Below, piece after piece: positions 15,405 to 50,600 of a stretch of 64,000 nucleotides of DNA (positions are counted from its first letter, which is position 1; every line of letters begins with the position of its first letter). The position numbers and the translations under genes are program-made. The stretch is from Globodera rostochiensis (Eukaryota; Nematoda; Chromadorea; Rhabditida; Heteroderidae): the NCBI GenBank assembly GCA_018350325.1, contig JAEVLN010000049.1:186001-250000 (forward strand), given 5' to 3'. The notes under the pieces were generated by a model. The model made no database searches and was not told the DNA's origin. It saw nothing but the letters and a program-made list of their open reading frames with translations.

Positions 15405-18400
15405 TCAAATCGGCACAAGGCGCTCCATCGCCCAAAGGGACATCACTAAAAAGCGACAAAAATTATTATATTTAAATTCAAAAATTTGATACCCAAACAA
15501 AAGATAGTCGTCGATGAAATGGTCTCAACATCCGCGCCACTTTCAGCAGTTGAAGATGGCTCCGTCGATGGAGTCTCCTGCTCCGGCTCGGTAGTTGTCG
15601 TCGTGCTCATTGCAGACGTCGTAGTGGTGGGTGCCGTTGTAGTCAGTGCCGTTGTCGTCGTAGTGGTCGTCGTCGTTGTAGAGGCGCCAAAAGGCTATAA
15701 AAAATAGAATTTTTTTTGAAACTAGACCTAGACCCAAATTTCAAAGCAGTTACAAATAACATTTAAAGACCAAACTTTAGGGTTTTTGGTCTTTTTTTTA
15801 ATTTAAAGGTTTTTTCAACTTTATTTTTGTTTTAATCGGGTCAAATCGCCTAGCAGGTCGGCGGTGCCGATAAGCGCCGCCGAGAATATTTTGAATTTTG
15901 ACTTAATTTGTTAAGAGATTTGCAACAACAATTTAATTTTGCGACAATTTTTTGAAGCTTTTTTTTTAGGAATGGTAGAGGTCCAAAGAAATTTTTTAAA
16001 AGATTTTGATAGAATTTGTTAAAAAATTTGTCAGAATTTTTAAAATTACAGAATAAAAGGGTCCCCCTATGGAAGTGAATTCGTTGAAGCAAAAAAAAAA
16101 ATACAAATCGAGGACTCGAACCTCAACAATCGAAAATTTAGGGACACAGTTTTACTGCCACATAAGTTTTGAAAACAGTAGGGAAAATTCAAATATATTA
16201 CCCAATCAGGTTCAATTTTGACCCTGTTCTGTTCCAAAAAATAACCGGAACAGTCAAAATCTGTTCTGTTCCTGTTCCAAGAATTTTGAATCTGTTCTGT
16301 TCTAAAATCCTAAAATAGAACAGGAACAGAACAGAACAGGCCAAGCTGGAACAGCAAAACACTGGTATGTATATGAGTAGTCAAAAAATTTGTGCAATAA
16401 ATCTGCGAAAAAAGGTACCAACCGGCGCATCCCTGGAGCAACAACGGAACTCATGGCCTGGATAACAACATTCGCCGCCCCGGAAGCCAGGATTGGGAAT
16501 GCACCGGTAGAAGTCGCATTTCTTACAAATTGCCTTGATGATCGCTTTGTTGCAAAGTGGCGTTGATGTCGTCTTCACAAATAAAAGTTATTTTTTCAAT
16601 TTAATTAAGTGAAATTGTAATTGTTAAACACGCTGATAATTCACCTACCGTAGGCTGTTTGGTTATCTGAAAAGATAAAATTATGTACAATAAAAAGTGA
16701 CAAAAAATGCTTTTTCAAATAGATAGTCATAAAAGAATTAAGACAACATAAAAACATTGAACGCGTCGCGGACCGATCAAGATTCTCAATCGAAATCTCG
16801 GTCAAGACTTGTAATTTTCAGTGATCTCAAACGAATCATTATTGTTCAATTTTTTCCGGAATTTCCGAAATTTTCGATCGAAATTTCGATCGGGCCTCAA
16901 GTCTGGCCGCTAGTATATAGTAGAAAAAAGTTGAGCAATAAAAACTGCAAAAAAAAGCACCAGACGGTCCATGGAACAGCAACGGTACTCATTGTCTTCG
17001 GGACAGCAGCCGCTGTCCGAAAAGCCAACAGAGTTGGGCATGCACCGGTAGGAGTCACATTCCGTGCAGACGGCCTTGATGATTGACTTGTTCTGGCAAG
17101 TGTCCTGCAAATTTAATGATGTAATTGTTAAACACGTTGCTAATTAATTCACTTACCGTAGTCAGCTTAGCCGTCTAAAAAGACAAATGACGATACGGTA
17201 ATTATTCAAGTGTTATAAAATAGCAAAAAAATTAGGGCTTTAGTTCAGTTTATGCGTCTAAAACTGACTTCAAACGTAGGTAACCGATTCATACCTTATT
17301 AAAGCCATTTAAAAGTTTTCAAAGAGCTGAAGCGTTAATCTAAAGCTTTTGATTGGACAACAATCAAAAACGTATGATACGAATTTAAAAATCCCCGAGT
17401 TTTGTAGTTTCTGGTCATAGCTTTTTTTTTGATATTTGTCCAATCGAAATTTTCAGCTTATAAACTAAAATAAAGCCAAAATTTAATAATGTAATTAGCG
17501 TAAAACATCCCGTAGTAGTGGGAGTTGTCGTCGTCGAAATCTAAAAATAAAATAACAGGACATATTTTGTTAGGTTGGATTATAAGCATAAATTTATTGT
17601 TCAAATTAGGGTTGAGCCCCGAGCCCTAAAATGGGAACGCCTCCGACATGGCCAACCCCGGCCTCCCCGACTTTCCTGCCCCGAGGGGCCGGGGCTCAAC
17701 ACTAGTGTTCAAATTTAGATGCTATCATATGGCCCGGATTTTGGGTGAAAAAAGAGTTTTTCTTTTTTTTATGGAAAGTATCAAATATGTATAAAAATCA
17801 GATAGGTGTTCAGAACACCTGAAAACCCAGAAAGTTGTTCCCCATTCAGTTTTACCGTAAATGCATAAAACATACCGTAGTGATCGTTGGAGTTGTACTC
17901 ATTGGAGAACCCCCCTAAACGGTTAAATGGGTACTTTTCGGTTCTACGACAATTTAAACACATTTTCAGTGGCAATTTGGAAACACGAATATGATTTAGG
18001 TATTGATAAATTGATCGAATTTTTCATTATTAAACAAAAGTTGAGTAAACAAAAATTTTATGTTTTTTTTAGAAAAGTAAGGTTTTCTGTTATGATGGAT
18101 GAACTGTAACCGGTTCAAAAATGTTATACATTGAAGAACAATCACATTTTTGCAATTAGAAAGTAGGGTTGGACAAAACCGGATATTCTGGAACCGGTAT
18201 GGGACAATTTTGAATAAAAATTATCCGGTCTTGAACGACGGCAGCTAAATTATGCTTGATCCGGGACCGGTATCCGGGTGTTTTTGAGCTATCCGGTATC
18301 CGGGGGACACGGATAATATCCGGTTTTGTCCAACCCTATTAGAAAGAATCACCGGCTTTGTGACACAGCACGTGAACAAATAATGATCAGCGCAGCAGGC

Positions 18401-20246
18401 GCTGCCGTGGAACCCGGTAAAGGGGGAGCATGTGTAGAAGTCGCAGACCTTGCAAATTTCCAGGATCTTCGCCTTGTCATTGCAATATTTTTCCTCGGTG
18501 ATTTCAAAGGGCGCCGACTAATTGTGAAAATGGTTAAATACTGTCAATTAGCGTACCGTAGGCTCCTTGGTTGCCTGAAAGTGAAAATGCACCCGGTTAT
18601 TAGCGAAAATAGTTGTTAAAGTTGACAATAAATTGGTCTTAGTTTTAATTCTTGGCGTTTTTTATGCAAAAATTTAGTTTAAATTTAAACGGAATTGAGA
18701 TTGGTACATTATTGAACTAAAAACAATCGCTTTAGAAGATTATTGTTTATAAGTTTTTAAAGTTGTACCAATAAAATTCGAGAATCTTTGTTTGTAAGGC
18801 TTAGGGGCTACATACCCGAATCCAGCCCGTGCCGAATACAGACCGGAGCAATAACTGTCTTTAAACTTAACCGATTCAGACTTTCTAAAAACCATTCGAA
18901 AGCTCACGAAGAGATGAAGCTATAGTTAAGCTAAAGTTTTTGCGATTAGACAAGTCTCAAAAAAGTTATGGCCAAAAAACTTTAAAAAAGTTTAGATTTT
19001 TTAATTTTTGGCCACAACTTTTTTTTGAGACCTGTATAGTTTAAAGACAGTTATTGCCCCGGTCTGTATTCGGAACGGTCTGGATTCAGATCGTACGCCC
19101 TCTCAGGTGGCAAATTGTGCCTACATTGGTGCAGCACTGAAATTCGTAGTGATTGTCACAACAGATGGTGTTCGTCTCATAACCGACAAAAACGCAGCTG
19201 CCATGCCCACACGAGACGCATTCATATTTCACCTTCTGCCCGCATTCCTCGTTCACCGGCTTTTCCAGGGGATAAATATATCCCTTAAGAAAACATTTCA
19301 TGTTAAGTACAATAATTACTTTGAATTACGTCATTTTGCAAAAAGCAAAAAAAATTTCGGGGCTAATAACCGAGACCATTAATGAGTTTTGAAATAAACC
19401 CCAGGGCCAATTTTAGTTTCCAAATAGACAGTTCAGACTCAATTCCGTACATTAGGGCTGCTCCCCGAGGGGTGGTAAATCGGAGGTTGGGGTTCTTCGG
19501 GGGGCGCTAAATTTGAGGGTCGGGGATGAAGCCCAAAAATGTCGGGGGCACCGAGAGTTTGAGTTGGGGATTGGGCGCCGGGGCGATTGTCGGGGAAAAA
19601 CGGAACTCAGTGGTAAATATAAATGAACGTAAAATCATAATCGAACACGAATCTCATCAATCATAAAAGCCGGTTCAAAAAGCTTTCATTTACATACAGG
19701 GTAAGGTTCGTCGTTGTAATGGCACTCAAATGTGTAGTTTGCTACACAACATGGACTGGCCGAAGTCCCCTCCTTCCGGGTGCATTTGCCACGACCACTT
19801 GAACAGAGCGTCTTCACTTCTTGGCACTCTTTGGCACGTTGCAATTGCGGAGGCAATTCCTGTTTGGATAAATTAGTGGTAAAATGCCCAAAAAATAAAC
19901 ACACAGGGAAGTAGAATTGTATTCCGAACATTTTAGGTTGGAATTGCGGGGTCTTAACAAAATGAGCAATGTTCTAATTTGTTGGACGTGACCAGGTCAA
20001 AAGGTGATCAAGGGGCAATTTACAAAATTCCAGGCCCATGTTACATGATCACGGGCATGCCCAAATGGCCTTGGTTTACGTGATCACATCCAACCCTGAT
20101 CACGGGTCTAAAGCCAACCGATTGTACAACGCTCAGGCAGAAGATGATTAGGAGCAGGGGACGGATTTCTAAAAATGCAAATCGGGTATTGGACAAAAAT
20201 GTGGGAAGCTGTTACTGGATTTGAGTTTGCCGACGAAAGCCGACAT
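15405..20246 (-). CDS. Secreted cysteine-module/Thr-linker protein, copy A
   Basis: Predicted exons 5' to 3': 20216-20246, 20104-20168, 19698-19859, 19125-19283, 18557-18574, 18353-18517, 17876-17914, 17511-17540 (donor doubtful), 17157-17174, 16961-17104, 16649-16666, 16423-16572, 15493-15694, 15405-15445; about 413 aa. The first two exons give a signal peptide (MSAFVGKLKSK then IRPLLLIIFCLSVV). Five exons (19698, 19125, 18353, 16961, 16423) each encode one 48-55-residue module with the pattern C-x6-9-C-x2-C-x4-C-x10-11-CC-x7-CC. The most 5' module is degenerate. Linker exons of 18, 39, 30, 18 and 18 nt encode ATKEPT, GGSPMSTTPTITT, ISTTTTPTTT, TAKLTT and ITKQPT. The last long exon is a Thr-rich, probably O-glycosylated stalk. 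The start might instead be the ATG at 20531, since the frame stays open. I do not recognise the module family; role unknown, extracellular by inference. Confidence 0.7.
16100..16165 (-). other. tRNA-derived (SINE-like) fragment
   Basis: On the minus strand GGTTCGAGTCCTC is a perfect pol III B-box, with an A-box-like ATGTGGCAGTAAAACTG upstream. No complete cloverleaf can be drawn. It lies in the intron before the Thr-rich exon of gene A, and a weaker relative occurs near 15085-15115. Confidence 0.35.
16770..16913. mobile_element. Degenerate short MITE (ACCGATC family), copy A
   Basis: It begins ggaccgatcaagattctc and ends with cgatcgggcctcaagtctgg before ctagtatatag. The same element, in the same intron position, is in copy B at 27460-27602, so it inserted before the duplication. 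It lies between the 18-nt exon 16649-16666 and module exon 16961-17104. Confidence 0.65.
17225..17485. mobile_element. Inverted-repeat element, copy A
   Basis: Arms around ggctttagttcagtttatg (left) and cttataaactaaaataaagc (right) are imperfect reverse complements around an AT-rich core. A homologous element is at about 27915-28175 in copy B, and the core resembles that of the 18818-19087 element. It lies within an intron of gene A. Confidence 0.45.
17607..17706. mobile_element. Short GC-rich inverted-repeat insertion
   Basis: The left end TAGGGTTGAGCCCCG and right end CGGGGCTCAACACTAG are near inverted repeats, with gttcaaat on both sides. Copy B lacks this block at the corresponding place. 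A related element, TAGGGTTCAGCCCCG ... CGGGGCTGAAC, is near 54270-54448 in the gon-1 gene. Confidence 0.55.
18164..18338. mobile_element. hAT-like MITE with perfect ends, 175 bp
   Basis: Terminal inverted repeats begin TAGGGTTGGACAAAACCGGA and end in its complement. An exact 8-bp duplication TTAGAAAG lies at 18156-18163 and 18339-18346. Copy B has a single TTAGAAAG at 28825-28832 at the homologous site, an empty target. It lies in the intron just downstream of module exon 18353-18517. Confidence 0.92.
18818..19087. mobile_element. Long-terminal-inverted-repeat MITE, 270 bp
   Basis: About 50-bp arms (GAATCCAG...CCGAATACAGACCGG ... CCGGTCTGTATTCGG...CTGGATTC) continue into ataactgtctttaaac/gtttaaagacagttat. 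It lies in the intron between module exon 19125-19283 and microexon 18557-18574 of gene A. No clear target duplication. Confidence 0.75.
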
Positions 20247-20531
20247 GGCAACTTCCAGCAAGCCAAACACGAGAAGCAAAGCGGTTGCAAGCGGCAAGTT
20301 GATGCCGAATCCGGATTTTGATGCCAATTGGGAGACGGTCATTGTGCCCGTTTCGGCATTGCCATCAGACGACGATTGGTCGGCGCTTTCGATGGCAATG
20401 GCGACATTTTTGAGCGAAGGAGAATGGGGGAGCACCAAGTTTCCGATTTCAGCTTTCAAGGCCACAATGATGAAGAGGAGAGTCAGGCAGGAAATGAGGA
20501 GGAAAAGCGGTCGGCACGGCATGCCGATCAT
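20217..20531 (-). other. Possible N-terminal extension of gene A (open on both strands)
   Basis: In frame with the MSAFVG start, the minus strand stays open upstream to MIGMPCRPLFLL, adding 95 residues with two hydrophobic segments. Copy B (30954-31268) is also open, with the same length and about 24 substitutions. The plus strand is likewise open here (charged ORF containing MATSSKPNTRS). Which strand, if either, is coding beyond the signal exon is undecided; it may simply be 5' UTR. Confidence 0.3.
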
Positions 20532-20960
20532 TCCTGGAAACCCCGGAAAGTTAACCAATCGCATAAAAAGTCAAGTGTTCGAGTTCCAGAGTTGGAATAG
20601 GAATGCCCCCAAAAAACTTTTTTATTAAGGAAACTCGGGTTTTAGGACTCAAATTTCCAAATAAATGAGAATATAATTTTGATCCTTCAAATGATGGACG
20701 AAATGAATCATCCGGGACGGAGTGGACTGATCGGACTGCTATTCCCCAACCGACAATTTTGCTGTGTGAAAAATTCTCTTAATAGCGGCCACATCATCAT
20801 ATTGTTGTGAACAAATTCGATCATAGACATTTTTGGGTCCGGAATTCCGGTTTCCGGACCTTTTTTGCATCCGGTCATCTTGCTATAGTTCCCTAGTCTG
20901 TTTCTCTGTTCTGTCAAGGATTTCAGAACGAGACAGAAACAGACCAAAATTGACTGTTCT

Positions 20961-21086
20961 TATTTTTTTTAGATCAGAACTGAGTTTTAATACATTTGAA
21001 TTTTTTCAACATTCTCAATAAGCTCAGTGGTAATAATGTCTGGCGTAAGTTAGAGTCCGGTAAAAATTCGGTCAAAAAAATAAACA
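20961..21086. other. Short spacer before the satellite
   Basis: AT-rich bridge between the edge of duplication copy A and the first satellite units. I see nothing coding here. Confidence 0.5.
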
Positions 21087-24000
21087 GAAAACCAGAATTC
21101 TGGTCTTTTTTTAAAAAGCAGAAAAGAAAACAGAATCTGCTCGCCATAAAACCAGAAACAAAATTCTGGCGCCATTTTTAAAATCAGAAACCAGAGAAAA
21201 TTCTGGTCGCCTTTTAAAATCAGAAAACAGACATAATTCTGGTCGTCTTTTAAAATCAAAAACCAGACATAATTCTGGTCGCCATTTTTAAAATCAGAAA
21301 CCAGAGATAATTCCGGTTGCATTTTAAAATCAGAAAACAGACATAATTCTGGTCGCCTTTTAAAATCAGAAAACAGACATAATTCTGGTTGCCTTTTAAA
21401 ATCAGATCCAGACTAATTCTGGTCGCCATTTTTAAAATTAGAAACCAGAGATAATTCTGGTCGCCTTTTAAAATCAGAAACCAGACATAATTCTGGTCGC
21501 CTTTTAAAATCAGAGACCAGAGATAATTCTGGTTGCCTTTTAAAATCAAAAACAGACATAATTCTGGTTGCCTTTTAAAATCAGATCCAGACTAATTCTG
21601 GTCGCCATTTTTAAAATTAGAAACCAGAGATAATTCTGGTCGCCTTTTAAAATCAGAAACCAGACATAATTCTGGTCGCCTTTTAAAATCAGAGACCAGA
21701 GATAATTCTGGTTGCCTTTTAAAATCAAAAACAGACATAATTCTGGTTGCCTTTTAAAATCAGAAAACAGACATAATTCTGGTCGCCTTTTAAAATCAGA
21801 AACCAGAGATAATTCTGGTTGCCTTTTAAAATCAAAAACAGACATAATTCTGGTTGCCTTTTAAAATCAGAGACCAGACATAATTCTGGTCGCCTTTTAA
21901 AATCAGAAACCATACATAATTCTGGTCGCCATGTTTAAAATCAGAAACCAGACATAATTCTGGTCGCCTTTTAAAATCAGAAACCATACATAATTCTGGT
22001 CGCCATGTTTAAAATCAGAAACCAGACTTAATTCTGGTCGCCATTTTTAAAATCAGAAACCAGAGATAATTCCGGTTGCCTTTTAAAATCAGAAAACAGA
22101 CATAATTCTGGTCGCCATTTTTAAAATCAGAAAACAGACATAATTCTGGTTGCCTTTTAAAATCAGAAACCAGACTAATTCTGGTCGCCATTTTTAAAAT
22201 TAGAAACCAGAGATAATTCTGGTCGCCTTTTAAAATCAGAAACCAGAGATAATTCTGGTTGCCTTTTAAAATCAGAAACCATACATAATTCTGGTCGCCA
22301 TGTTTAAAATCAGAAAACAGACATAATTCTGGTCGCCTTTTAAAATCAGAAACCATACATAATTCTGGTCGCCATGTTTAAAATCAGAAACCAGACATAA
22401 TTCTGGTCGCCATTTTTAAATCAGAAACCAGAGATAATTCTGGTCGCCTTTTAAAATCAGAAAACAGACATAATTCTGGTCGCCATGTTTAAAATCAGAA
22501 ACCAGACATAATTCTGGTCACTATTTTTAAATCAGAAACCAGAGATAATTCTGGTCGCCATTTTTAAAATTAGAAACCAGAGATAATTCTGGTCGCCTTT
22601 TAAAATCAGAAACCATACATAATTCTGGTCGCCATGTTTAAAATCAGAAACCAGACATAATTCTGGTCGCCATTTTTAAATCAGAAACCAGACATAATTC
22701 TGGTCACTATTTTTAAATCAGAAACCAGAGATAATTCTGGTTGCCTTTTAAAATCAGAAAACTGACATAATTCTTGTTGCCTTTTAAAATCAGAAACCAG
22801 ACATAATTCTGGTCGCCATTTTTAAATCAGAAACCAGAGATAATTCTGGTCGCCATTTTTAAAATTAGAAACCAGAGATAATTCTGGTCGCCTTTTAAAA
22901 TCAGAAACCATACATAATTCTGGTCGCCATGTTTAAAATCAGAAACCATACATAATTCTGGTCGCCATTTTTAAATCAGAAACCAGACATAATTCTGGTC
23001 ACTATTTTTAAATCAGAAACCAGAGATAATTCTGGTTGCCTTTTAAAATCAGAAAACTGACATAATTCTTGTTGCCTTTTAAAATCAGAAACCAGACATA
23101 ATTCTGGTCGCCATTTTTAAATCAGAAACCAGAGATAATTCTGGTTGCCTTTTAAAATCAGAAAACAGACATAATTCTGGTCGCCTTTTAAAATCAGAAA
23201 ACAGACATAATTCTGGTCGCCTTTTAAAATCAGAAAACAGACATAATTCTGGTTGCCTTTTAAAATCAGAAACCAGATATAATTCTGGTTGCCTTTTAAA
23301 ATCAGAAAACAGACATAATTCTGGTCGCCTTTTAAAATCAGAAAACAGACATAATTCTGGTTGCCTTTTAAAATCAGAAACCAGAGATAATTCTGGTCGC
23401 CTTTTAAAATCAGAAACCAGACATAATTCTGGTTGCCTTTTAAAACCAGAAACCAGACATCATTCTGGTCGCCTTTTAAAATCAGAAACCAGACTAATTC
23501 TGGTCGCCATTTTTAAAATTAGAAACCAGAGATAATTCTGGTCGCCTTTTAAAATCAGAAACCAGAGATAATTCCGGTTGCCTTTTAAAATCAGAAACCA
23601 TACATAATTCTGGTCGCCATGTTTAAAATCAGAAAACAGACATAATTCTGGTCGCCTTTTAAAATCAGAAACCATACATAATTCTGGTCGCCATGTTTAA
23701 AATCAGAAACCAGACATAATTCTGGTCGCCATTTTTAAATCAGAAACCAGAGATAATTCTGGTCGCCTTTTAAAATCAGAAAACAGACATAATTCTGGTC
23801 GCCATGTTTAAAATCAGAAACCAGACATAATTCTGGTCACTATTTTTAAATCAGAAACCAGAGATAATTCTGGTCGCCATTTTTAAAATTAGAAACCAGA
23901 CATAATTCTGGTCACTATTTTTAAATCAGAAAACAGACATAATTCTGGTCGCCATGTTTAAAATCAGAAACCAGACATAATTCTGGTCACTATTTTTAAA

Positions 24001-25672
24001 TCAGAAACCAGAGATAATTCTGGTCGCCTTTTAAAATCAGAAACCATACATAATTCTGGTCGCCATGTTTAAAATCAGAAACCAGACATAATTCTGGTCG
24101 CCATTTTTAAATCAGAAACCAGACATAATTCTGGTCACTATTTTTAAATCAGAAACCAGAGATAATTCTGGTTGCCTTTTAAAATCAGAAAACTGACATA
24201 ATTCTTGTTGCCTTTTAAAATCAGAAACCAGACATAATTCTGGTCGCCATTTTTAAATCAGAAACCAGAGATAATTCTGGTCGCCATTTTTAAAATTAGA
24301 AACCAGAGATAATTCTGGTCGCCTTTTAAAATCAGAAACCATACATAATTCTGGTCGCATATTTAAAATCAGAAACCATACATAATTCTGGTCGCCATTT
24401 TTAAATCAGAAACCATACATAATTCTGGTCGCCATGTTTAAAATCAGAAACCAGACATAATTCTGGTCGCCATTTTTAAATCAGAAACCAGAGATAATTC
24501 TGGTCGCCTTTTAAAATCAGAAAACAGACATAATTCTGGTCGCCATGTTTAAAATCAGAAACCAGACATAATTCTGGTCGCCATTTTTAAATCAGAAACC
24601 AGAGATAATTCTGGTCGCCTTTTAAAATCAGAAAACAGACATAATTCTGGTCGCCATGTTTAAAATCAGAAACCAGACATAATTCTGGTCACTATTTTTA
24701 AATCAGAAACCAGAGATAATTCTGGTCGCCATTTTTAAAATTAGAAACCAGAGATAATTCTGGTCGCCTTTTAAAATCAGAAACCATACATAATTCTGGT
24801 CGCCATGTTTAAAATCAGAAACCAGACATAATTCTGGTCGCCATTTTTAAATCAGAAACCAGACATAATTCTGGTCACTATTTTTAAATCAGAAACCAGA
24901 GATAATTCTGGTTGCCTTTTAAAATCAGAAAACTGACATAATTCTTGTTGCCTTTTAAAATCAGAAACCAGACATAATTCTGGTCGCCATTTTTAAATCA
25001 GAAACCAGAGATAATTCTGGTCGCCATTTTTAAAATTAGAAACCAGAGATAATTCTGGTCGCCTTTTAAAATCAGAAACCATACATAATTCTGGTCGCCA
25101 TGTTTAAAATCAGAAACCATACATAATTCTGGTCGCCATTTTTAAATCAGAAACCAGACATAATTCTGGTCACTATTTTTAAATCAGAAACCAGAGATAA
25201 TTCTGGTTGCCTTTTAAAATCAGAAAACTGACATAATTCTTGTTGCCTTTTAAAATCAGAAACCAGACATAATTCTGGTCGCCATTTTTAAATCAGAAAC
25301 CAGAGATAATTCTGGTTGCCTTTTAAAATCAGAAAACAGACATAATTCTGGTCGCCTTTTAAAATCAGAAAACAGACATAATTCTGGTCGCCTTTTAAAA
25401 TCAGAAAACAGACATAATTCTGGTTGCCTTTTAAAATCAGAAACCAGATATAATTCTGGTTGCCTTTTAAAATCAGAAAACAGACATAATTCTGGTCGCC
25501 TTTTAAAATCAGAAAACAGACATAATTCTGGTTGCCTTTTAAAATCAGAAACCAGAGATAATTCTGGTCGCCTTTTAAAATCAGAAACCAGACATAATTC
25601 TGGTTGCCTTTTAAAACCAGAAACCAGACATCATTCTGTTTTAAAATCAGAAACCAGACATAATTCTGGTTA
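21087..25672. repeat. 4.6-kb satellite array (~36-bp unit)
   Basis: Units of about 33-38 bp are built from cagaaaccagacataattct and ggtcgccttttaaaat (variants: ggtcgccatttttaaa, ggtcactatttttaaa, ggttgcc). The array separates the two segmental-duplication copies. Diagnostic variants such as aactgacataattcttgttg recur near 22760, 23047, 24190, 24930 and 25228, showing larger blocks duplicated inside the array. The reverse strand reads as repeated DFKRxPELCLVS or FLILKGDQNYVW; these are artefacts. Confidence 0.95.
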
Positions 25673-25851
25673 AAAATCTGCACGCCAATATCAACTTTTC
25701 CTAATTCAAATCTTTTTTGTTAATAATGTTTTTTCATTGTAAAAATTTTGCTTTACATATTTTGGAGTGTTTTAGGACCAACAATCCGGGCCTTATAGTT
25801 AGTGGGAAATGTCGGAATTATCGAGAAATTTAGCGTTTCTTTCTTAGTCAA

Positions 25852-28800
25852 TCAAATCGGCAAAAGACGTTCCATCGCCCAAAGGGACATCACTAAAAAG
25901 CGACAAAAATTATTATATTTAAATCAAAAATTTGATACCCAAACAAAAGATAGTCGTCGATGAAATGGTCTCAACTCCAGAGTCATTTTCAGCAGTTGAA
26001 GATGGCTCCGTCGATAGGGTCTCCTGCTCCGTCTCGGTAGTTGACGTCGTACTCATTTCAGTCGTCGTAGTGGTGGTTTCCGTTGTTGTCGTAGTGACGT
26101 CCTGGAGCTAACAAATAAATGTTAAAAGAAATTTGTGTTAGAAAATTAGACCCAATTTCAAGGATAAGATAGAGAAGAATAGTGATTGTATAATAAGTCT
26201 AATGCCCAGTTCGAGTTCGAATAGAGCTCCCCACGGGGACTCTAGTTGAGGAAATACGGGTCGTCTTGTGAATGTGTTGGTTGCCGTATTTCCTCAAATA
26301 GAGTCCCCCCCCGGGGGCTCTCTCTATTAAGGAAATACGGTATGTCGTCTTGTAAATGTATGTTATTACAATCAATCAGTTGTTAATAATCAATCATCGC
26401 GCTTTACCGTAGTCGGCAGAATTGCCTAAAGCAGTGATCTTTATAGAAAATATTTGAAGTTGAGACCGACATTTTGAAAGATCCTGGATCTGGATACTGG
26501 AATTCGCAAAGGTCTTATTGGTCAAAAAATTACTATTTTCACATATTTGAGTTTTTGGGGGAAGGTTTTTGAAAATTTGGCGATTTGTCACTAAAAATTC
26601 AAATTTGCGGGTGAAATCCACCGAAATTCCTGCTGTTTGTTGCTCAGAAACACCATCTTTAGAGGTGTATTTTTAATCCAGAAAATCCAGCTCTGATCCA
26701 GATCCAGATCGGTCTCTAATTTAAAGTAATATCTAATAAAAAAATTTAAAATTTAAAAAAGATTGAATAATTTTGGAAACAAAAACGATTTTGGAAATTT
26801 TTGAATTTAAAGTAATTTAATTTTTAATATCATTCGCGCTTACCGTAGTCGGTTGAGTTGCCTAAATAAATGAAAAATGTGTAACTTATCAAAACACTGA
26901 TTCCGCGAAACAGCAACGGAACTCTAGTGATCGGCCAGAAGGTTCGCTCGGTATTTTTCGGTAAAGTACCGAAGCCTGAGTACCGAAAAGTACCGAAAAA
27001 GCGGCGGTACTTTCCCGTACCGACCGAACACTAGTATGTATATGTAAATAGTCAAAAAATTGAGCAATAAATCTGCAAAAAAAAAGGCACTAACCGGCGC
27101 ATCCCTGGAGCAGCAACGGAACTCATGGTCTGGGTAACAACATCCGCCGCCGTGGAAGCCAATATTGGGAATGCACCGGTAGACGTCACATTCCGTGCAG
27201 ACGGCCTTGATGATCGCTTTGTTGCAAAGTGGCGTTGATGTCGTCTTCACAAATAAAAGTTATTTTGTTCAATTTAATTAAGTGAAATTGTTAAACACGC
27301 TGCTAATTCACTTACCGTAGGCTGTTTGGTTATCTGAAAAGTTAAAACTATATACATATATACCTAAGGGGCATTTGCAAATAAAAAGTGACAAAAAATG
27401 CCTTTTCAAAAAGGTAGTCAAAAAAGAATTGAGACAACGTAAAAACATTGAACGCGTCGCGGACCGATCAAGATTCTCGGTCGAAATCTCGGTCGAGATT
27501 CGTGATTTTCAGTGATCGAAAGAATCTCTATTGTTCAATTGTTTCCGAAATTATCGAGATTTTCGATCGAAATCTCGATCAGGCCTCAAGTCCGGGCTCT
27601 AGTATATAGTAGAAAAAAATTTGTGCAATAAAAACTGCAAAAAAAAGCACCAGACGGTCCATGGAACAGCAACGGTACTCATTGTCTTCGGGACAGCAGC
27701 CGCTGTCCGAAAAGCCAACAGAGTTGGGCATGCACCGGTAGGAGTCACATTCCGTGCAGACGGCCTTGATGATTGACTTGTTCTGGCAAGTGTCCTGCAA
27801 ATTTAATGATGTAATTGTTAAACAGGTTGCTAATTAATTCACTTACCGCACTCAGCCTGATGGGTGTCTAAAAGAAAAAATGACCTTACAGTAATTAAAT
27901 AAAACGGAAAAACTCTGGCTATAGCATTCAATGGCTTAGCACCAGTTAAAATTGATAACTTCAACCAATTAAGAGCTTTCGAAATGTCCAATCAAACTTT
28001 ATGCGTCCAAAAGCTAAAGAAGTTATGACCAGAAACTTTGGCCATAACTCTTTTGATATTTTTCCAATCGCAAAGCATTAGCTTAAGCTCTTTGGGAGCT
28101 TCCGAATGACTTTAAGAATTTAATGAATCGGTTAAGTTTGAAGTCAGGTTTGGACACATAAACTGAAATAGAGCCAAAATTTAATAAATGTAATTAGCGT
28201 AAAACATCCCGTAGTTGTAGGAATTGTCGTCGTCGAAACCTAAAGAACAAAATATATTTTTGTTTGTTGGGCTATAAAAACATAGAATTTTTGTTAATCT
28301 AAATTAGAATTACCGTATTTTAAAATTTTGGTTACCAACAAATTACCTAAGTCAAAAAAATCAAAATTTTCTCGGTGGCGCCCATCGGCACCGCCAACCC
28401 CAATCACCCCAGAAGCAATGCAGAATTTCGTAAAAATTATACTTTTTTAAATTCTTTAACAAAGTGCAGTAAAAACATACCGTAGTAGTCATAGTAGTTG
28501 TACTCATCAAAGAAGCCCCCTAAAGGCAAAATGGTACTTATCGGTTCTGCGACCTCCAGCCCAAATTGCATTTAAACGCACTTCTAGAGGCAATTTGGGT
28601 TTAGCGTTTTTGGACCTCTTTCAATATTAGCAAAACCATGGGGGGCGGGAACAGTAGTAAAAATTTTGTAAAATGTTTTTGTTAAAAAGTTATATTGACG
28701 AATTTTTGTAAATATAACTTATTTTTATAAATATAAGGATCCCTTTTATGATTTTGCGCATATTGAAACGGTAACCGGTTCAAAAATGGTATAAATTGTA

Positions 28801-30983
28801 AAAAACAAAATCACATTATTACAATTAGAAAGAATCACCGGTTTTGCAGCACCACAGCACTTAAACGAATAATGATTAGCGCAGCAGGCGCCGCCGGCAA
28901 AGCCAGTCTGCGGGATGCATTCGAAGAAGTCGCAGACCTTGCAAATCTCCAAGATCTTCGCCTTGTCTTTGCAATATTTTTTCTCAGTGATTTCAAAGGG
29001 CGCCGACTAATTTGGAGAAAAAGTGCAAAATTAATTGGCTAATTACTGTCAATTAGCGTACCGTAGTCTGCTTGGTTGCCTAAAAGTGAAAATGCACCCG
29101 GTTATTAGCAAAAATAGCCGTTTAAGTTGAAAATAAAATGAATGGGTCACAATTTTGTTGCTCGTGGTTTTTATGCAAAATAAATTAAAGGATCAATTAC
29201 TGTCAATTCGTGTACCGTAGGCGACTTGGTTGCCTGAAAATGAAAATGGTCCCGGTTATTAAAAAATTGTTGTTAAAGTTGAAAGAGTGAATGGGACAAA
29301 TTCTCAATTTTATTTCTCGTTTTTAAATTTATAAAATTAAAAATAAATTGGTGCATTTCGGACCAAAAACATTCGCTTTAGAAGGTTGTTGAAATTTTTA
29401 AAATTACTTTTAACATTATTTAATCATTTTAATATTTAAAAAAACACGAGAATCGTGGCCTGATTTATTAAAAAACAAAATTATGAATTCACATTCACAC
29501 TCCAGCAGAGCTGAGCGAACGGGATCGGGACTGAAATGTTGTTTTAAGACTCTTTTATATATAATGCCGGTTTTTGCCCGCCGGTATATTTCCTCCTCAT
29601 AAAATCGCGATTTTTTAATACTCAATTCCGATTTTTTTTAAATCTCGATCCGCTCAACTCTCGGGAGGCAAATTGACTTTGCGTACATTGGGGCAGCATT
29701 GAAATTTGTAGAATTGCGGGCAACAGGCGCTGACGGGGTTATCCTTCTGATTACCGACAAAAACACATTTGGCATGGCCGCCACACGAGGCACACTCAAC
29801 TTTCTCAAAGTCCAAGCAAAGCGTAAACACCGGCCTTTGCATCGGATAAACATAAAAAGAAAATACCGTATTACCTCTTTTAATTACCCATACCCCCACT
29901 CTCTAATAATTAAGGAGGTTGAAAAATAATTAGACTCTCTAATAATTACCCGGAATTTTTTCAAAAAAAGTTGGCTTTTAGTAAAAATCTTTAAAAAATG
30001 TCCCCGGCGGCGTCTATCGGCATCGCCGACCCCCTGCCTCCCCCCCCCCCCGGAAGACCTTGTACATATGTTGAAAAATTCGAAAATCGGCAAAATCCGG
30101 AGAAATTTTTTAACAATTATTTGCCCGATATTCGGATTTTTTCAGAAATCCGGGCTAAAGCTTGGTATTCGCCTGGCAAACAGCGCCCGGACGAAAAATA
30201 AAAATAAAAGCCTGTCCGGAAAGCCCGGCCGGCCCATTTTGGGGTGCCCGGAAAAAAGCCCGCGCGGTCCCAAGCCGATTCACCATAGAAGGGACCCTCA
30301 AGTCTATCAGATCCTCAATGTCAACTTTTTGGATGGATTTTGGGTCTAATGTAAATAGACGTTCTTCCTTAGCCCTTTTCAGTAGAGATTGGCTAAATAG
30401 ATAGAGCTTTTTCTGGTGTTGCTGTTCCGAACCCTAGTAGGTTTGTTGGGGACACAGCACTCAAATGTGTAGTTCGCTACACAACATGGACTGGCCGAAC
30501 TCCATTCCTTCAGGATGCATTTGCCATAACCACATGGACAGAGCGTCTTCACTTCTTGGCACTCTTTGGCACGTTGCAATTGCGGAGGCAATTCCTGTTT
30601 GGATAAATTAGTGGTAAAATGCCCAAAAAATAAACACACAGGGAAGTAGAATTGTATTCCGAACATTTTAGGTTGGAATTTTCGGGTCTTAACAAAATGA
30701 CCAATGTTCTAATTTGTTGGACGTGATCAGGTCAAAAAATATGTGGTCAAGGGGCAATTTACAAAATCACAGGCCCGTGATACGTGATCACGGGCATGTC
30801 CAAATGGTCTTGATTTACGTGAATTTAACCCTGATCACGGCGGGTCTAAAGCCAACCGATTGCACAATGCTCAGGCAGCAAAAGATTAGGAGCAGAGGAA
30901 GGAATTCTAAAAATGCAAATTGGGATTGGACAAAAATGTGGGAAGCTGTTACTGGATTTGAGTTTGCCGACGGAAGCCGACAT
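25852..30983 (-). CDS. Secreted cysteine-module/Thr-linker protein, copy B
   Basis: Predicted exons 5' to 3': 30953-30983, 30839-30906, 30433-30594, 29687-about 29850 (acceptor not found), 29216-29233, 29062-29079, 28839-29006, 28481-28519, 28210-28239 (donor doubtful), 27847-27867, 27651-27794, 27316-27333, 27095-27244, 26844-26861, 26408-26425, 25939-26107, 25852-25892. The signal peptide spans the first two exons (FLPLLLIFCCLSIV core). Modules keep the C-x8-9-C-x2-C-x4-C-x10-11-CC-x7-CC pattern; the exon at 29687 has a longer loop. Microexons encode ATKSPT, ATKQTT, GASLMSTTTMTTT, VSTTTIPTTT, TPIRLSA, ITKQPT, ATQPTT and AILPTT. The Thr-rich stalk exon starts LQDVTTTTETTTTT, and the C-terminus VMSLWAMERLLPI matches copy A at 12 of 13 residues. 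All modules and linkers sit in phase 0, so any could be skipped without a frameshift. Family not recognised. Confidence 0.65.
26215..26345. mobile_element. Inverted-repeat insertion private to copy B
   Basis: Words gaggaaatacgggtcgtctt, ccgtatttcctcaaatagag and aaggaaatacggtatgtcg form direct and inverted repeats around tagagtcccc blocks. Copy A has nothing like it. It lies in the intron between microexon 26408-26425 and the stalk exon. Confidence 0.5.
27460..27602. mobile_element. Degenerate short MITE (ACCGATC family), copy B
   Basis: Counterpart of 16770-16913 in the same intron, with the better preserved right end cctcaagtccgggctctag. Confidence 0.65.
29880..29950. mobile_element. Short insertion next to a module exon of gene B
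   Basis: The segment ccgtattacctcttttaatt followed by ctctctaataatta and a gaggttgaaaaataatt block resembles 2980-3070 inside the first hAT-like element. It abuts the 5' side of the module exon at 29687-29850, where the expected splice acceptor is missing. Confidence 0.4.
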
Positions 30984-31971
30984 GGCAACTTCCAGCAAGC
31001 CAAACACGAGAAGCGAAGCGGTTAAGAGCCAAAAGTTGATGCCAAACCCGGATTCTGGGCGCAATTGGGGGACGGTCATTGTGCCCGTTTCGGCTTCACA
31101 AGCAGACGACGATTGGTCTGAGCTTTCGATGGGAATTGCGAAGTTTTTGAGCGATGGCGCATGGGGGCCATCCAAGTTTTCGATTTCGGCTTTTAAGGCC
31201 ACAATGAAGAAGAGGAGGGACAGACAGAAAAGGAGGAGGAAAAGCGGGCGGCACGGCATGCCGATCATTCCTGGAAACCCCGGATAGTTAACCAGAAAAT
31301 TGGTCAAAAGTCTAAAAAGTGTCCGAGTTTCAGAGTTGCTAAAGGATGACCCCCAAAAAACTTTTATTATAGAAAATTGGCCTTAGGACAAAATTTAGAA
31401 ATAAATGAATAAATGGAATATAAATTTGATGCTTCAAATGAAACGGACAAAAATGAATCATCCGGGATAGAGTGGAGTGATCGGACTGGCTGTCACACCA
31501 ACAAATCCCACAACCGCGTCCCAATAACATCATCATTAAACGTGTTTTTTTGCATCTGGTATTTCCCTGGTACAATTCTGTTCTGTTTCTGTTCTGTTAT
31601 GATTTCAGAACAGAATTGACTGTTCTTGTTATTTTTGGAAAAATAAACTCTCGAACATCACTTTCTTTAAGGCAATGTTCCTAATCATCATCATATCTCA
31701 AACAGTGTTCTTTTTTTTGACATATCGTCAATTTTTGTGTTAAAACCAATCTGCCATATTTATATATTTATTTTCTGTTTTTATTTGTGCATATCGAACT
31801 TTTTTAAAATAAATTTTAAATTAAATGCAGAAATGTATTTACAAATAAAATTGTTTGGCGAATCGGACAAGAACTTTGCAAAAAAAAAAACAAGAAAATG
31901 CCTTTTTATGTTGGCATTATGTATTTATTATATAATAAGTTTGAATTTCGAGTTAGCCAAACACTGATCAG

Positions 31972-40244: not shown

Positions 40245-41215
40245 GAATAACCGGGTTTTGACTGGGATTAACCGGGTTTTGACTGGGATTAACCGGGTTT
40301 TGACTGGGATTAACCGGGTTTTGACTGGGATTAACCGGGTTTTGACTGGGATTAACCGAGTTTTGACTGGGATTAACCGGGGTTTGACTGGGATTAACCG
40401 GGTTTTGACTGGGATTAACCGGGTTTTGACTGGGATTAACCGGGTTTTGACTGGGATTAACCGGGTTTTGACTGGGATTAACCGGGTTTTGACTGGGATT
40501 AACCGGGTTTTGACTGGGATTAACCGGGTTTTGACTGGGATTAACCGGGTTTTGACTGGGATTAACCGAGGTTTTGACTGGGATTAACCGGGTTTTGACT
40601 GGGATTAACCGGGTTTTGACTGGGATTAACCGGGTTTTGACTGGGATTAACCGGGTTTTGACTGGGATTAACCGGGTTTTGACTGGGATTAACCGGGTTT
40701 TGACTGGGATTAACCGGGTTTTGACTGGGATTAACCGGGTTTTGACTGGGATTAACCGGGTTTTGACTGGGATTAACCGGGTTTTGACTGGGATTAACCG
40801 GGTTTTGACTGGGATTAACCGGGTTTTGACTGGGATTAACCGGGTTTTGACTGGGATTAACCGGGTTTTGACTGGGATTAACCGGGTTTTGACTGGGATT
40901 AACCGGGTTTTGACTGGGATTAACCGGGTTTTGACTGGGATTAACCGGGTTTTGACTGGGATTAACCGGGTTTTGACTGGGATTAACCGGGTTTTGACTG
41001 GGATTAACCGGGTTTTGACTGGGATTAACCGGGTTTTGACTGGGATTAACCGGGTTTTGACTGGGATTAACCGGGTTTTGACTGGGATTAACCGGGTTTT
41101 GACTGGGATTAACCGGGTTTTGACTGGGATTAACCGGGTTTTGACTGGGATTAACCGGGTTTTGACTGGGATTAACCGAGTTTTGACTGGGATTAACCGG
41201 GGTTTGACCAGGTTG
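40245..41215. repeat. 21-bp tandem array, about 46 copies
   Basis: Almost perfect repeats of accgggttttgactgggatt plus one a. Because 21 is a multiple of 3, frames stay open on both strands: VLTGINR repeats on plus, QNPVNPS repeats on minus (up to 226 codons). Variation is limited to a few cgag or ggtttg units at the edges and one at about 40567. No splice sites or gene context support translation. Confidence 0.97.
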
Positions 41216-41696
41216 ACCGGGTTTGGCTCTTAAAAAGACCAAATTTTTGTTCTCGAATGAGGGATATAAGCCGCTGGCCCAACTCTAATCCACTAGTAGT
41301 ACAATTTCATCAAAAGCCCGAACATCATTTCCCCTCTCTTCTGCTGTCGTCTGCAGCAGATGACAATGGCGGGCTGGCTGCTCTTAGAAAGAAGGACGGG
41401 GGGGGGCGGCGGTCTCTCATTGAAAAGTTGCAAAATTTCCTCCGCCTGAATAAATCATAAAAAATGTGTTTCAATCCGTCCCCATTCATTCCATTCCATT
41501 CATTTTGCCCCCATATGTGCGCCGCCGGCGACCAATTCAATTCATTCATTTTTTGGGGGTGGGGGGCTCCGATCTTCGCCCATTCTCCCCAATTGAGAGT
41601 GGCTCCAAAACGCCGCACAAAAGGCACTCAATCTAAACCAAAAATCAAACAAAAAAAATATACTATTTGGGACAATGACGTTTTCCCACATATTTT

Positions 41697-42364
41697 TGTT
41701 GTCGTCCGTTTGTCCCATCTACCCCTTTATGTCGTCCGTTTGTCCTATCTATTCCTTTATGTCGTCCGTTTGTCCCATCTACCCCTTTATGTCGTCCGTT
41801 TGTCCCATCTATTCCTTTATGTCGTCCGTTTGTCCTATCTATTCCTTTATGTCGTCCGTTTGTCCCATCTACCCCTTTATGTCGTCCGTTTGTCCCATCT
41901 ACCCCTTTATGTCGTCCGTTTGTCCCATCTACCCCTTTATGTCGTCCGTTTGTCCCATCTACCCCTTTATGTCGTCCGTTTGTCCCATCTACCCCTTTAT
42001 GTCGTCCGTTTGTCCCATCTACCCCTTTATGTCGTCCGTTTGTCCCATCTACCCCTTTATGTCGTCCGTTTGTCCCATCTACCCCTTTATGTCGTCCGTT
42101 TGTCCCATCTACCCCTTTATGTCGTCCGTTTGTCCCATCTACCCCTTTATGTCGTCCGTTTGTCCCATCTACCCCTTTATGTCGTCCGTTTGTCCCATCT
42201 ACCCCTTTATGTCGTCCGTTTGTCCCATCTACCCCTTTATGTCGTCCGTTTGTCCCATCTACCCCTTTATGTCGTCCGTTTGTCCCATCTACCCCTTTAT
42301 GTCGTCCGTTTGTCCCATCTACCCCTTTATGTCGTCCGTTTGTCCCATCTACCCCTTTATGTCG
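41697..42364. repeat. 30-bp tandem array, 22 copies
   Basis: Units gtcgtccgtttgtcccatct plus acccctttat. The first five or six copies carry t-variants (gtcctatctattcc); the rest are identical. Ten-codon periodicity leaves two plus-strand frames open (VVRLSHLPLY and SSVCPIYPFM). A lone gtccgttcc/gtcgtccatttgtc block recurs near 42880-42930, beyond the MITE. Confidence 0.97.
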
Positions 42365-42408
42365 TTCTGTTTTGTAACCATTTTTGTCGTCAATTTGTAC
42401 TTGTACAT

Positions 42409-47679: not shown

Positions 47680-50600
47680 TGAATAGGAGCATTTTTAAAT
47701 CCGTCGTGATCGGACCCCAGGAAAACTTGGGCTTGAAATTGGACCAGTTTCAATGTGTTAAGCGATCAACAACTGATCAGCATGTTCGGCGACGGCTGTT
47801 GTTGATCACCTCAGTGATCTCATGTGCATCTCTTCTGCTCTTCACTCTTATCACCTCTTTGATCTTTATCCGCCGCCGACCCTTTGATGACGTCACCCGC
47901 ACGGATCTCAACGACGAATTGGGCGGCAATGATCAACAGTTGATCAGAAAGCTGCGCGGGGCTTATTCAGGTGATCAAATTGAGACGGTGCTTGGCTTAG
48001 ATCCGGGATTGATCAAATTTGGATAAAATTGATCAGGACATTTATTGGGATTTGGGGGGCAATAAATAAAATATGATTAGAAGGAAACCAAAGACTTTTT
48101 TTGCTAAACTGATCGAATAGCAGTTGATCATCCTCAAGCTCTGTCAGTTGTTTTTTATTCACTGATCGATTGTTGATCGATCACTCACTGTCTTCATCTG
48201 TCATTTTAGGCAAAAATTTTATTCCAGAAATTTTTTACTCAACTGATCGATGGCTGTTGATCAGTGTTGAGTGATCATTCACCTCCCTCCCCTCCCACTG
48301 GACGTGTTGAGAATGTGATGGTGAAAATGTTGCGATTTTTCCCCTCTCGCCCGTCATCGTCACATTCATTGTTTGTGTTACGCTTTTTCTCCCCCCCCCC
48401 CCTCCACCCTCGCTGAATTGGTGAAAAAAGTTTGGCCAAGTGCCCACATCGAACACTTTGCAATTTTTTTGGTGATTGATTGACTGACTGGCAGTGTCGG
48501 GGGTTGGCCAATTGACTTTTGGACAAATTAACGAGCAAATAATAGGGGGGAGGGGGGAGACAAAAGTATGGGCGCCATGTCCGAATGTCCGCCGGTCAAA
48601 TGGCCGGGCCAGACACCAACAATGCACGATTATGGCGGCCCTTGAGAGTGGGGGCGGCAATTTGGCCACGGATTAGAGACACCCCAGGCCCGGGTCCTTG
48701 AGTTGGGGCTGAGTCGGGAATTTGGCCACGGATTAGAGGACCCCAGGCCCGGGTCCTTGAGTTGGGGCTGAGTCGGGATTTGGCCACGGATTAGAGACAC
48801 CCCAGGCTCGGGTCCTTGAGTTGGGGCTGAGTCGGGAATTTGGCCACGGATCAGAGACACCCAAGGCCCGTGTCCTTGAGTGGGGCTGAGTCGGGATTTG
48901 GCCACGGATTAGACACCCCCCTGGCCCGGGTCCTTGAGTTGGGGCTGAGTCGAGAATTTGGCCACGGATTAGAGGCACCCCAGGCCCGGGTCCTTGAGTC
49001 GGGCTGAGTCGAGAATTTGGCCACGGATTAGAGGCACCCCAGGCCCGGGTCCTTGAGTCGGGCTGAGTCGGGATTTGGCCACGGATTAGAGACACCCCAG
49101 GCCCGGGTCCTTGAGTGGGGCTGAGTCGGGATTTGGCCACGGATTAGAGGCACCTCAGGCCCGTGTCCTTGAGTAGGGCTGAGTCGAGAATTTGGCCACG
49201 GATTAGAGGCACCCCAGGCCCGGGTCCTTGAGTCGGGCTGAGTCGGGATTTGGCCACGGATTAGAGACACCCCAGGCCCGGGTCCTTGAGTGGGGCTGAG
49301 TCGGGATTTGGCCACGGATTAGAGACACCCCAGGCCCGTGTCCTTGAGTAGGGCTGAGTCGAGAATTTGGCCACGGATTAGAGGCAACCCAGGCCCGGGT
49401 CCTTGAGTGGGGCTGAGTCGGGATTTGGCCACGGATTAGAGGCACCTCAGGCCCGTGTCCTTGAGTAGGGCTGAGTCGAGAATTTGGCCACGGATTAGAG
49501 GCACCCCAGGCCCGGGTCCTTGAGTCGGGCTGAGTCGGGATTTGGCCACGGATTAGAGACACCCCAGGCCCGGGTCCTTGAGTGGGGCTGAGTCGGGATT
49601 TGGCCACGGATTAGAGGCACCTCAGGCCCGTGTCCTTGAGTAGGGCTGAGTCGAGAATTTGGCCACGGATTAGAGGCACCCCAGGCCCGGGTCCTTGAGT
49701 CGGGCTGAGTCGGGATTTGGCCACGGATTAGAGACACCCCAGGCCCGGGTCCTTGAGTGGGGCTGAGTCGGGATTTGGCCACGGATTAGAGACACCCCAG
49801 GCCCGTGTCCTTGAGTAGGGCTGAGTCGAGAATTTGGCCACGGATTAGAGGCAACCCAGGCCCGGGTCCTTGAGTGGGGCTGAGTCGGGATTTGGCCACG
49901 GATTAGAGGCACCTCAGGCCCGTGTCCTTGAGTAGGGCTGAGTCGAGAATTTGGCCACGGATTAGAGGCACCCCAGGCCCGGGTCCTTGAATCGGGCTGA
50001 GTCGGGATTTGGCCACGGATTAGAGACACCCCAGGCCCGGGTCCTTGAGTGGGGCTGAGTCGGGATTTGGCCACGGATTAGAGGCACCTCAGGCCCGTGT
50101 CCTTGAGTAGGGCTGAGTCGAGAATTTGGCCACGGATTAGAGGCACCCCAGGCCCGGGTCCTTGAGTCGGGCTGAGTCGGGATTTGGCCACGGATTAGAG
50201 ACACCCCAGGCCCGGGTCCTTGAGTGGGGCTGAGTCGGGATTTGGCCACGGATTAGAGACACCCCAGGCCCGTGTCCTTGAGTAGGGCTGAGTCGAGAAT
50301 TTGGCCACGGATTAGAGACACCCCAGGCCCGGGTCCTTGAGTCGGGCTGAGTCGGGATTTGGCCACGGATTAGAGACACCCCAGGCCCGGGTCCTTGAGT
50401 GGGGCTGAGTCGGGATTTGGCCACGGATTAGAGACACCCCAGGCCCGTGTCCTTGAGTAGGGCTGAGTCGAGAATTTGGCCACGGATTAGACACCCCCCC
50501 CCCCCTCCGGGCGCCCATTCCCACGCCAAAATGTACAAAAATGGGACGGACGGAACAAACAAGTGGTCCCTAAAAATGATACGAGCAAAAAGTGATGGAC

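What the first reader, a model, noticed from the sequence alone, without database searches (positions are those of the whole stretch)
15405..31268. Modular secreted genes built from phase-0 cysteine exons joined by 18-nt Thr-rich microexons
Each of the two paralogues has five cysteine-module exons (C-x6-9-C-x2-C-x4-C-x10-13-CC-x7-CC), nearly all separated by tiny exons of 18, 21, 30 or 39 nt encoding linkers such as ITKQPT, TAKLTT and ATQPTT. All modules and linkers have phase-0 borders, so any combination of skipped exons keeps the frame. With a signal peptide and a Thr-rich stalk, this architecture could produce many secreted isoforms with different module numbers and spacing. I recognise no known family.
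Basis: partly seen in the sequence, partly recalled or inferred. Interest (0 to 1): 0.88.

Follow-up and report, generated by a model that had tools for sequence, protein, structure and literature searches.

The report
Cyst-nematode bead genes with microexon linkers
A potato cyst nematode carries an apparently unnamed family of predicted extracellular proteins built from small cysteine-rich beads, many of them joined by tiny linkers that have their own very short exons; whether the worm uses this to make many protein versions is untested.

Summary
The observation largely holds. Two minus-strand paralogues (A 15405-20531, B 25852-31268) each have five cysteine-module exons, tiny exons of 18-39 nt and a Thr-rich exon. 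Two of thirteen tiny exons (the 30-nt pair) lack a GT donor, and B's module 1-2 borders are unclear. Database models of both genes exist (P0002, P0003, Globodera rostochiensis) and carry 5 of 5 and 7 of 8 tiny-exon peptides; G. pallida models keep some of them. Modules lie on nine contigs. Elsewhere too, module exons are often preceded by a short Pro/Thr-rich exon: 13 of 49 modules against 102 of 3535 random sites. No Pfam match above cut-off and no convincing PDB match was found. Best reading: an unnamed extracellular Cys-module family that changes by duplicating linker and module exons and by gene conversion (200 identical bases around module 4). 'Signal peptide' is incomplete: three N-terminal hydrophobic stretches suggest tethering. 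New variant of the microexon-gene kind.

The parts
20216..20531 (-). Gene A exon 1: start codon, hydrophobic stretches 1 and 2
   Evidence: phase-1 end, donor gtaaca; an acceptor-like tttccag lies just before the ATG
20104..20168 (-). Gene A exon 2: third hydrophobic stretch, signal-peptide-like (PLLLIIFCLSVVQS)
   Evidence: donor gtgatc weak, P0002 ends this exon slightly later
19698..19859 (-). Gene A module 1 (6 cysteines)
19125..19283 (-). Gene A module 2
18557..18574 (-). Gene A microexon ATKEPT
18353..18517 (-). Gene A module 3
17876..17914 (-). Gene A 39-nt exon GGSPMSTTPTITT
17511..17540 (-). Gene A 30-nt exon ISTTTTPTTT, donor GG instead of GT
17157..17174 (-). Gene A microexon TAKLTT
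16961..17104 (-). Gene A module 4, inside a 200-nt tract identical to B
16649..16666 (-). Gene A microexon ITKQPT
16423..16572 (-). Gene A module 5
15493..15694 (-). Gene A Thr-rich stalk exon
15405..15445 (-). Gene A last coding exon, with stop
30953..31268 (-). Gene B exon 1
30839..30906 (-). Gene B exon 2, signal-peptide-like
30439..30594 (-). Gene B module 1, donor unclear
   Evidence: not whole in P0003
29687..29848 (-). Gene B module 2, acceptor unclear
   Evidence: not whole in P0003
29216..29233 (-). Gene B microexon ATKSPT
29062..29079 (-). Gene B microexon ATKQTT
28839..29006 (-). Gene B module 3
28481..28519 (-). Gene B 39-nt exon GASLMSTTTMTTT
28210..28239 (-). Gene B 30-nt exon VSTTTIPTTT, donor GG
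27847..27867 (-). Gene B 21-nt microexon TPIRLSA
   Evidence: absent from P0003, but TPIRLS is in G. pallida P0006
27651..27794 (-). Gene B module 4, identical to A
27316..27333 (-). Gene B microexon ITKQPT
27095..27244 (-). Gene B module 5
26844..26861 (-). Gene B microexon ATQPTT
26408..26425 (-). Gene B microexon AILPTT
25939..26107 (-). Gene B Thr-rich stalk exon
25852..25892 (-). Gene B last coding exon, with stop

Best explanation
These are two tandem members of an unnamed Globodera family of extracellular proteins. Each protein is a string of about 45-residue, mostly 8-cysteine beads spaced by Thr/Pro linkers that are probably O-glycosylated, ending in a mucin-like Thr stalk; the N-terminus probably tethers it to a membrane or is cut to release it. 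A frequent genomic unit is a two-exon cassette: a linker microexon, a tiny intron (39-76 nt in A and B) and a module exon. Such a short intron is probably recognised across itself, so microexon and module would be spliced in together. Because the borders in the middle of the gene are phase 0, cassettes or single linkers can be added, lost or exchanged without frame damage. The layout therefore mainly serves evolution (module number, linker length, module exchange by gene conversion); regulated skipping is possible but secondary. Shown here: exon anatomy, phases, family spread, recurrence of linker exons before modules, identical tracts. Inferred: extracellular location, glycosylation, disulphides, tethering, co-splicing.
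For: Exon table with phases and splice signals. Database models carrying tiny-exon peptides in G. rostochiensis, and some of them in G. pallida. Conserved islands around the 39- and 30-nt exons. Modules on nine contigs. Cassettes before 6 of 10 window modules, before 6 of 8 module exons in a C67 run, with five of six introns 44-49 nt (four of these six linkers were picked by eye), at C67:3.37 Mb, and 13 of 49 outside-window modules by scan against 102 of 3535 random sites. The linker region of A occurs twice in B. Identical 200-nt and 143-nt tracts between A and B; longest run in 2000 permutations 107. All five modules come out as helix plus two-strand hairpin in a low-confidence model, and one module does so at moderate confidence.
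Against: No transcript or protein data were available, so location, glycosylation and splicing are untested. Seven of the 13 tiny exons (both 39-nt, both 30-nt, ATKSPT, ATQPTT, AILPTT) are not in the microexon-tiny intron-module arrangement, and modules 1 and 2 of both genes have no microexon before them. The splice matrices were trained on the window's own exons, and many module acceptors outside the window scored poorly. Of the 13 outside hits one is an artefact and one a duplicate. A module 1 has lost two cysteines and the B module 1-2 junction is irregular. Structure confidence is moderate (72) for one module and very low (35) for the whole protein. Public models place several exon borders differently from my reading.
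Confidence: 0.55

Rival explanations
1. Splicing-based diversity generator, like schistosome micro-exon genes: regulated skipping of phase-0 exons yields many isoforms from one gene.
For: Middle-gene borders are phase 0. A review describes symmetrical exons and exon-skipping variants in schistosome micro-exon genes (passages of PMC4015677). The G. pallida model P0009 joins module 4 directly to the Thr stalk, and P0006 and P0007 lack module 3.
Against: Models of A and B include 5 of 5 and 7 of 8 tiny-exon peptides. Symmetric phase follows from exon duplication alone. The short or gapped models may reflect draft assemblies or prediction errors.
Confidence: 0.22
2. A secreted effector family delivered into the host plant, with module variation driven by plant recognition.
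For: Plant-parasitic nematode, cysteine-rich secretory-type proteins, local tandem duplication; tandem clustering of effectors is reported for this species (passages of PMC4901422).
Against: No dorsal-gland box (ATGCCA) within 1 kb upstream of A on either strand; B has one at 649 and one reverse at 948. Three hydrophobic N-terminal stretches fit a membrane or surface protein better.
Confidence: 0.13
3. Partly decayed locus: B and some tiny exons are relics and only part of the array is used.
For: GG donor on the 30-nt exon in both copies; unclear B module 1-2 borders; A module 1 has 6 cysteines.
Against: Exon frames are open, a similar gene pair exists in G. pallida, and several microexon peptides are conserved there.
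Confidence: 0.08

Closest known systems
Schistosoma micro-exon genes (MEGs)
   Same: Most have a signal peptide; tiny symmetric exons that keep the frame (passages; here).
   Different: In MEGs microexons make up to 75% of the coding sequence; here they make up 93-123 nt of gene A and carry linkers between large cysteine-module exons. No sequence relation was tested; no isoforms shown here.
Nematode cysteine modules ET (PF01684), CC (PF04942), DB (PF01682)
   Same: Short, cysteine-rich, repeated in nematode extracellular proteins (recalled).
   Different: None of these appears among the Pfam matches of the modules or full-length models tested; no ET match in the genome, though that search's control is weak. 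One G. pallida model, P0008, bears the automatic name 'DB domain-containing'.
Somatomedin B (SMB) domain
   Same: Eight cysteines with a CC pair shortly before an aromatic residue (recalled); one G. pallida model, P0007, is auto-named 'SMB domain-containing'.
   Different: Not among the Pfam matches, and 0 of 9 proteins fit the SMB cysteine pattern as recalled.
Globodera hyper-variable (HYP) effectors
   Same: Same genus, variable secreted proteins (recalled).
   Different: No relation was tested; I saw only methods passages of PMC11228951.

Membership tests
Schistosome-type micro-exon genes | Symmetric tiny exons that keep the frame | tested here: met
   13 tiny exons, all divisible by 3; 11 with a canonical donor
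Schistosome-type micro-exon genes | Signal peptide or secretory start | tested here: inconclusive
   three hydrophobic N-terminal stretches by hydropathy; no signal-peptide program was available
Schistosome-type micro-exon genes | Microexons form much of the coding sequence | tested here: not met
   93-123 nt of tiny exons in gene A against 1527 coding nt
Schistosome-type micro-exon genes | Exon-skipping isoforms | not testable with these tools
   no transcript data
ET / CC / DB modules (Pfam) | Match to the Pfam profile | tested here: not met
   not listed at E up to 10 for 7 window modules, 4 relatives and 2 longer frames or 9 full-length models; the tool's filters drop most matches above about 0.1
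Somatomedin B domain | Pfam profile and cysteine pattern | tested here: not met
   not listed; recalled pattern 0 of 9 proteins
Dorsal-gland effectors of Globodera | DOG box upstream | tested here: inconclusive
   A none within 1 kb; B one at 649 and one reverse at 948; no chance expectation computed

The most novel reading that the evidence does not exclude
Cyst nematodes hold a MEG-like system in which a linker microexon and its module exon form one splicing cassette, and regulated use of these cassettes, together with module exchange between tandem paralogues, tunes bead number and spacing of a surface protein family.
Probability: 0.2. Interest if true: 0.8.

Novelty: new variant of a known kind. 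Interest (0 to 1): 0.5.

Why it matters
It points to an expanded, apparently undescribed protein family of a major potato pest, with a recurrent gene design (linker microexon plus module exon) that lets module number, spacing and exchange evolve without frame damage. Transcript data would show at once whether this is also a source of isoforms.

Tried and rejected

Literature: ten searches. From their listings I saw no paper on this family; alone matched 1,865 papers of which 8 were listed. Of the 5 papers holding 'Globodera' and 'microexon' I read the passages found: four name a read-mapping option and one takes lists of microexon genes from earlier papers. Papers outside this open-licence library were not seen.

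Full report
WHAT IS THERE. The window lies in a 92.6-Mb genome, contig C44:186001-250000. All 12 exon translations of gene A that I tested occur letter for letter in the Globodera rostochiensis database protein P0002 (A0A914HFD4). For gene B, 11 of 15 occur in P0003 (A0A914HCK1); the four that do not are exon 1 (the model starts later), modules 1 and 2 (my unclear borders) and TPIRLSA. So the source is this potato cyst nematode or a very near strain. One search placed the exons of gene A (15405-20531) and gene B (25852-31268), both on the minus strand. Each has two N-terminal exons, five cysteine-module exons, several tiny exons, a Thr-rich exon and a short last exon. The 8 module exons with clear borders and the 13 tiny exons are divisible by three.

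ARE THE TINY EXONS REAL? Three lines speak for most of them. First, gene models contain their peptides: 5 of 5 in P0002 and 7 of 8 in P0003. G. pallida P0004 and P0005 hold ATKEPT, GGSPMSTTPTITT, AKLTT and ITKQPT (of A's five, ISTTTTPTTT is absent and TAKLTT reads MAKLTT). P0006 (B-like) holds only ITKQPT and TPIRLS of B's eight, plus ISTTTTPTTT, and lacks module 3. P0002 and P0004 are 86% identical overall. I did not verify what evidence the models rest on; a Globodera genome paper describes BRAKER annotation with RNA-seq (passages of PMC11228951), but I cannot tie these models to it. The models draw some borders differently from mine, for example around the 30-nt exon and the end of module 3. 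Second, conservation between A and B. Many non-coding windows align at only 33-56%, and 1089 of 3600 non-coding bases of A fall in alignable islands, yet all five tiny exons of A do. The clearest are the isolated islands around the 39-nt exon (74 columns, 78%) and the 30-nt exon (108 columns, 87%). For TAKLTT and ITKQPT this says little, since nearly the whole stretch from 17220 to 16364 is conserved at about 92% including introns, and TAKLTT itself aligns at 61% with a 3-base gap. ATQPTT and AILPTT of B have no counterpart in A. Third, other members of the family have such exons too.

THE FAMILY AND THE CASSETTE. A profile of the window's modules finds modules in all 14 fetched 10-kb stretches (chosen for earlier hits), on C67, C21, C20, C24, C51, C8, C65 and C23, besides C44. 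A scan with splice matrices trained on the window's exons found a microexon-like exon upstream of 19 of the 55 modules with a phase-0 acceptor (4 more had none), against 1.0 expected from Markov shuffles. In the window this is 6 of 10, outside it 13 of 49; one of the 13 is an artefact (the tail of another module) and one a duplicate, and many outside acceptors scored poorly. At 3535 random AG sites of the same stretches the rate was 102, or 2.9%, some of them the same exons. The 11 distinct outside peptides have a Pro+Thr share of 0.47 against 0.25 for 34 distinct random hits. In a run of 8 module exons on one strand of C67, taken as one gene, 6 have a microexon upstream: APK, PPPPPP, PKT, PPK, KPPQTT, ATALTTTT, 9-24 nt, with the intron to the module 44-49 nt in five and 318 nt in one. 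The scan had found two of these; the other four I picked by eye. C67:3.37 Mb shows IPTTTV (by eye) and APTTEATT in the same position. In A and B the corresponding intron is 39-76 nt for six tiny exons; the other seven tiny exons stand apart. So 'microexon, tiny intron, module exon' is a frequent unit, not the only arrangement.

EVOLUTION. The ATKEPT region of A matches two places in B, holding ATKSPT and ATKQTT, so a linker exon can duplicate alone. Modules 4 and 5 are related, with their upstream flanks. Between A and B there are identical tracts of 200 nt (A 16935-17134, covering module 4 and parts of both flanking introns) and 143 nt (A 19803-19945); the longest run in 2000 permutations of the island columns was 107. 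G. pallida has an A-like model (GPALN_006047, P0004) and a B-like one (GPALN_006041, P0006). There the B-like module 4 differs, whereas in this genome B has the A version. The simplest reading is gene conversion of one module in the G. rostochiensis line.

WHAT THE PROTEIN IS. No Pfam match above cut-off and no convincing PDB match was found. One module was predicted at mean pLDDT 72 as a helix followed by a two-strand hairpin, without a convincing Foldseek or VIA match. In the full-length model (mean 35, unreliable) all five modules again come out as helix plus hairpin. The 9 homologues found are all from Globodera; one search scored only the 7998 candidates sharing most words, so relatives in Heterodera are not excluded. 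Another G. rostochiensis member (P0001) has an N-A-S repeat, an RQKR site and modules. Hydrophobic stretches lie at residues 20-38, 93-111 and about 118-140 of P0002, with a basic loop between the last two; the last 19 residues are moderately hydrophobic (1.42, below the 1.6 used). By the positive-inside rule (general knowledge) the modules would lie outside the membrane, tethered or cut free. Exon 1 was found only in these two genes in this genome.

MECHANISM. I take the gene design as mainly an evolutionary device: phase-0 exons can be added, lost and exchanged freely. Co-splicing of microexon and module across a very short intron is inferred from general knowledge of intron definition in nematodes. 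Alternative isoforms remain possible; no transcript data could be consulted. GC donors are frequent in Globodera (3.46% of introns; passages of PMC4901422), and two apparent ones follow C67 modules, but the GG donor of the 30-nt exon is not explained by that.

LITERATURE. From ten search listings I saw no description of this family; 'microexon' and 'cysteine' do not occur in the main text of the 2016 genome paper. MEG statements are from passages of a review (PMC4015677).

Noticed in passing
17511-17540 and 28210-28239: A 30-nt Thr exon is conserved in both paralogues (island of 87%) yet has GG in place of a GT donor in both; G. pallida P0006 carries its peptide too. Unexplained.
   Followed up: partly
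16935-17134 = 27625-27824; 19803-19945 = 30538-30680: Identical tracts of 200 and 143 nt between the paralogues, suggesting recent gene conversion.
   Followed up: yes
21149-25670: A 36-bp satellite array of about 124 copies lies between the two genes.
   Followed up: no
40248-41224 and 41700-42365: A 21-bp array (46.5 copies, 98% match) open on both strands over much of its length, and a 30-bp array (22 copies) inside a 419-codon open frame.
   Followed up: no
48660-50499 and 58238-59795: Long GC-rich tandem arrays (periods 175, 292 and 467; and 64 to 432) with long open frames.
   Followed up: no
L042:2941-3951, L047:3554-4888, P0001: Family members in which a long low-complexity repeat is followed by a basic RQKR-like site and then a cysteine module.
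   Followed up: partly
L049/L052 and L050/L051: Module stretches that are identical on two contigs (C8 and C23) or 12.6 kb apart on C65: recent duplicates or assembly duplicates.
   Followed up: no
L039:5935 and L039:7029: Apparent GC splice donors after cysteine modules, a donor type reported to be frequent in Globodera.
   Followed up: no
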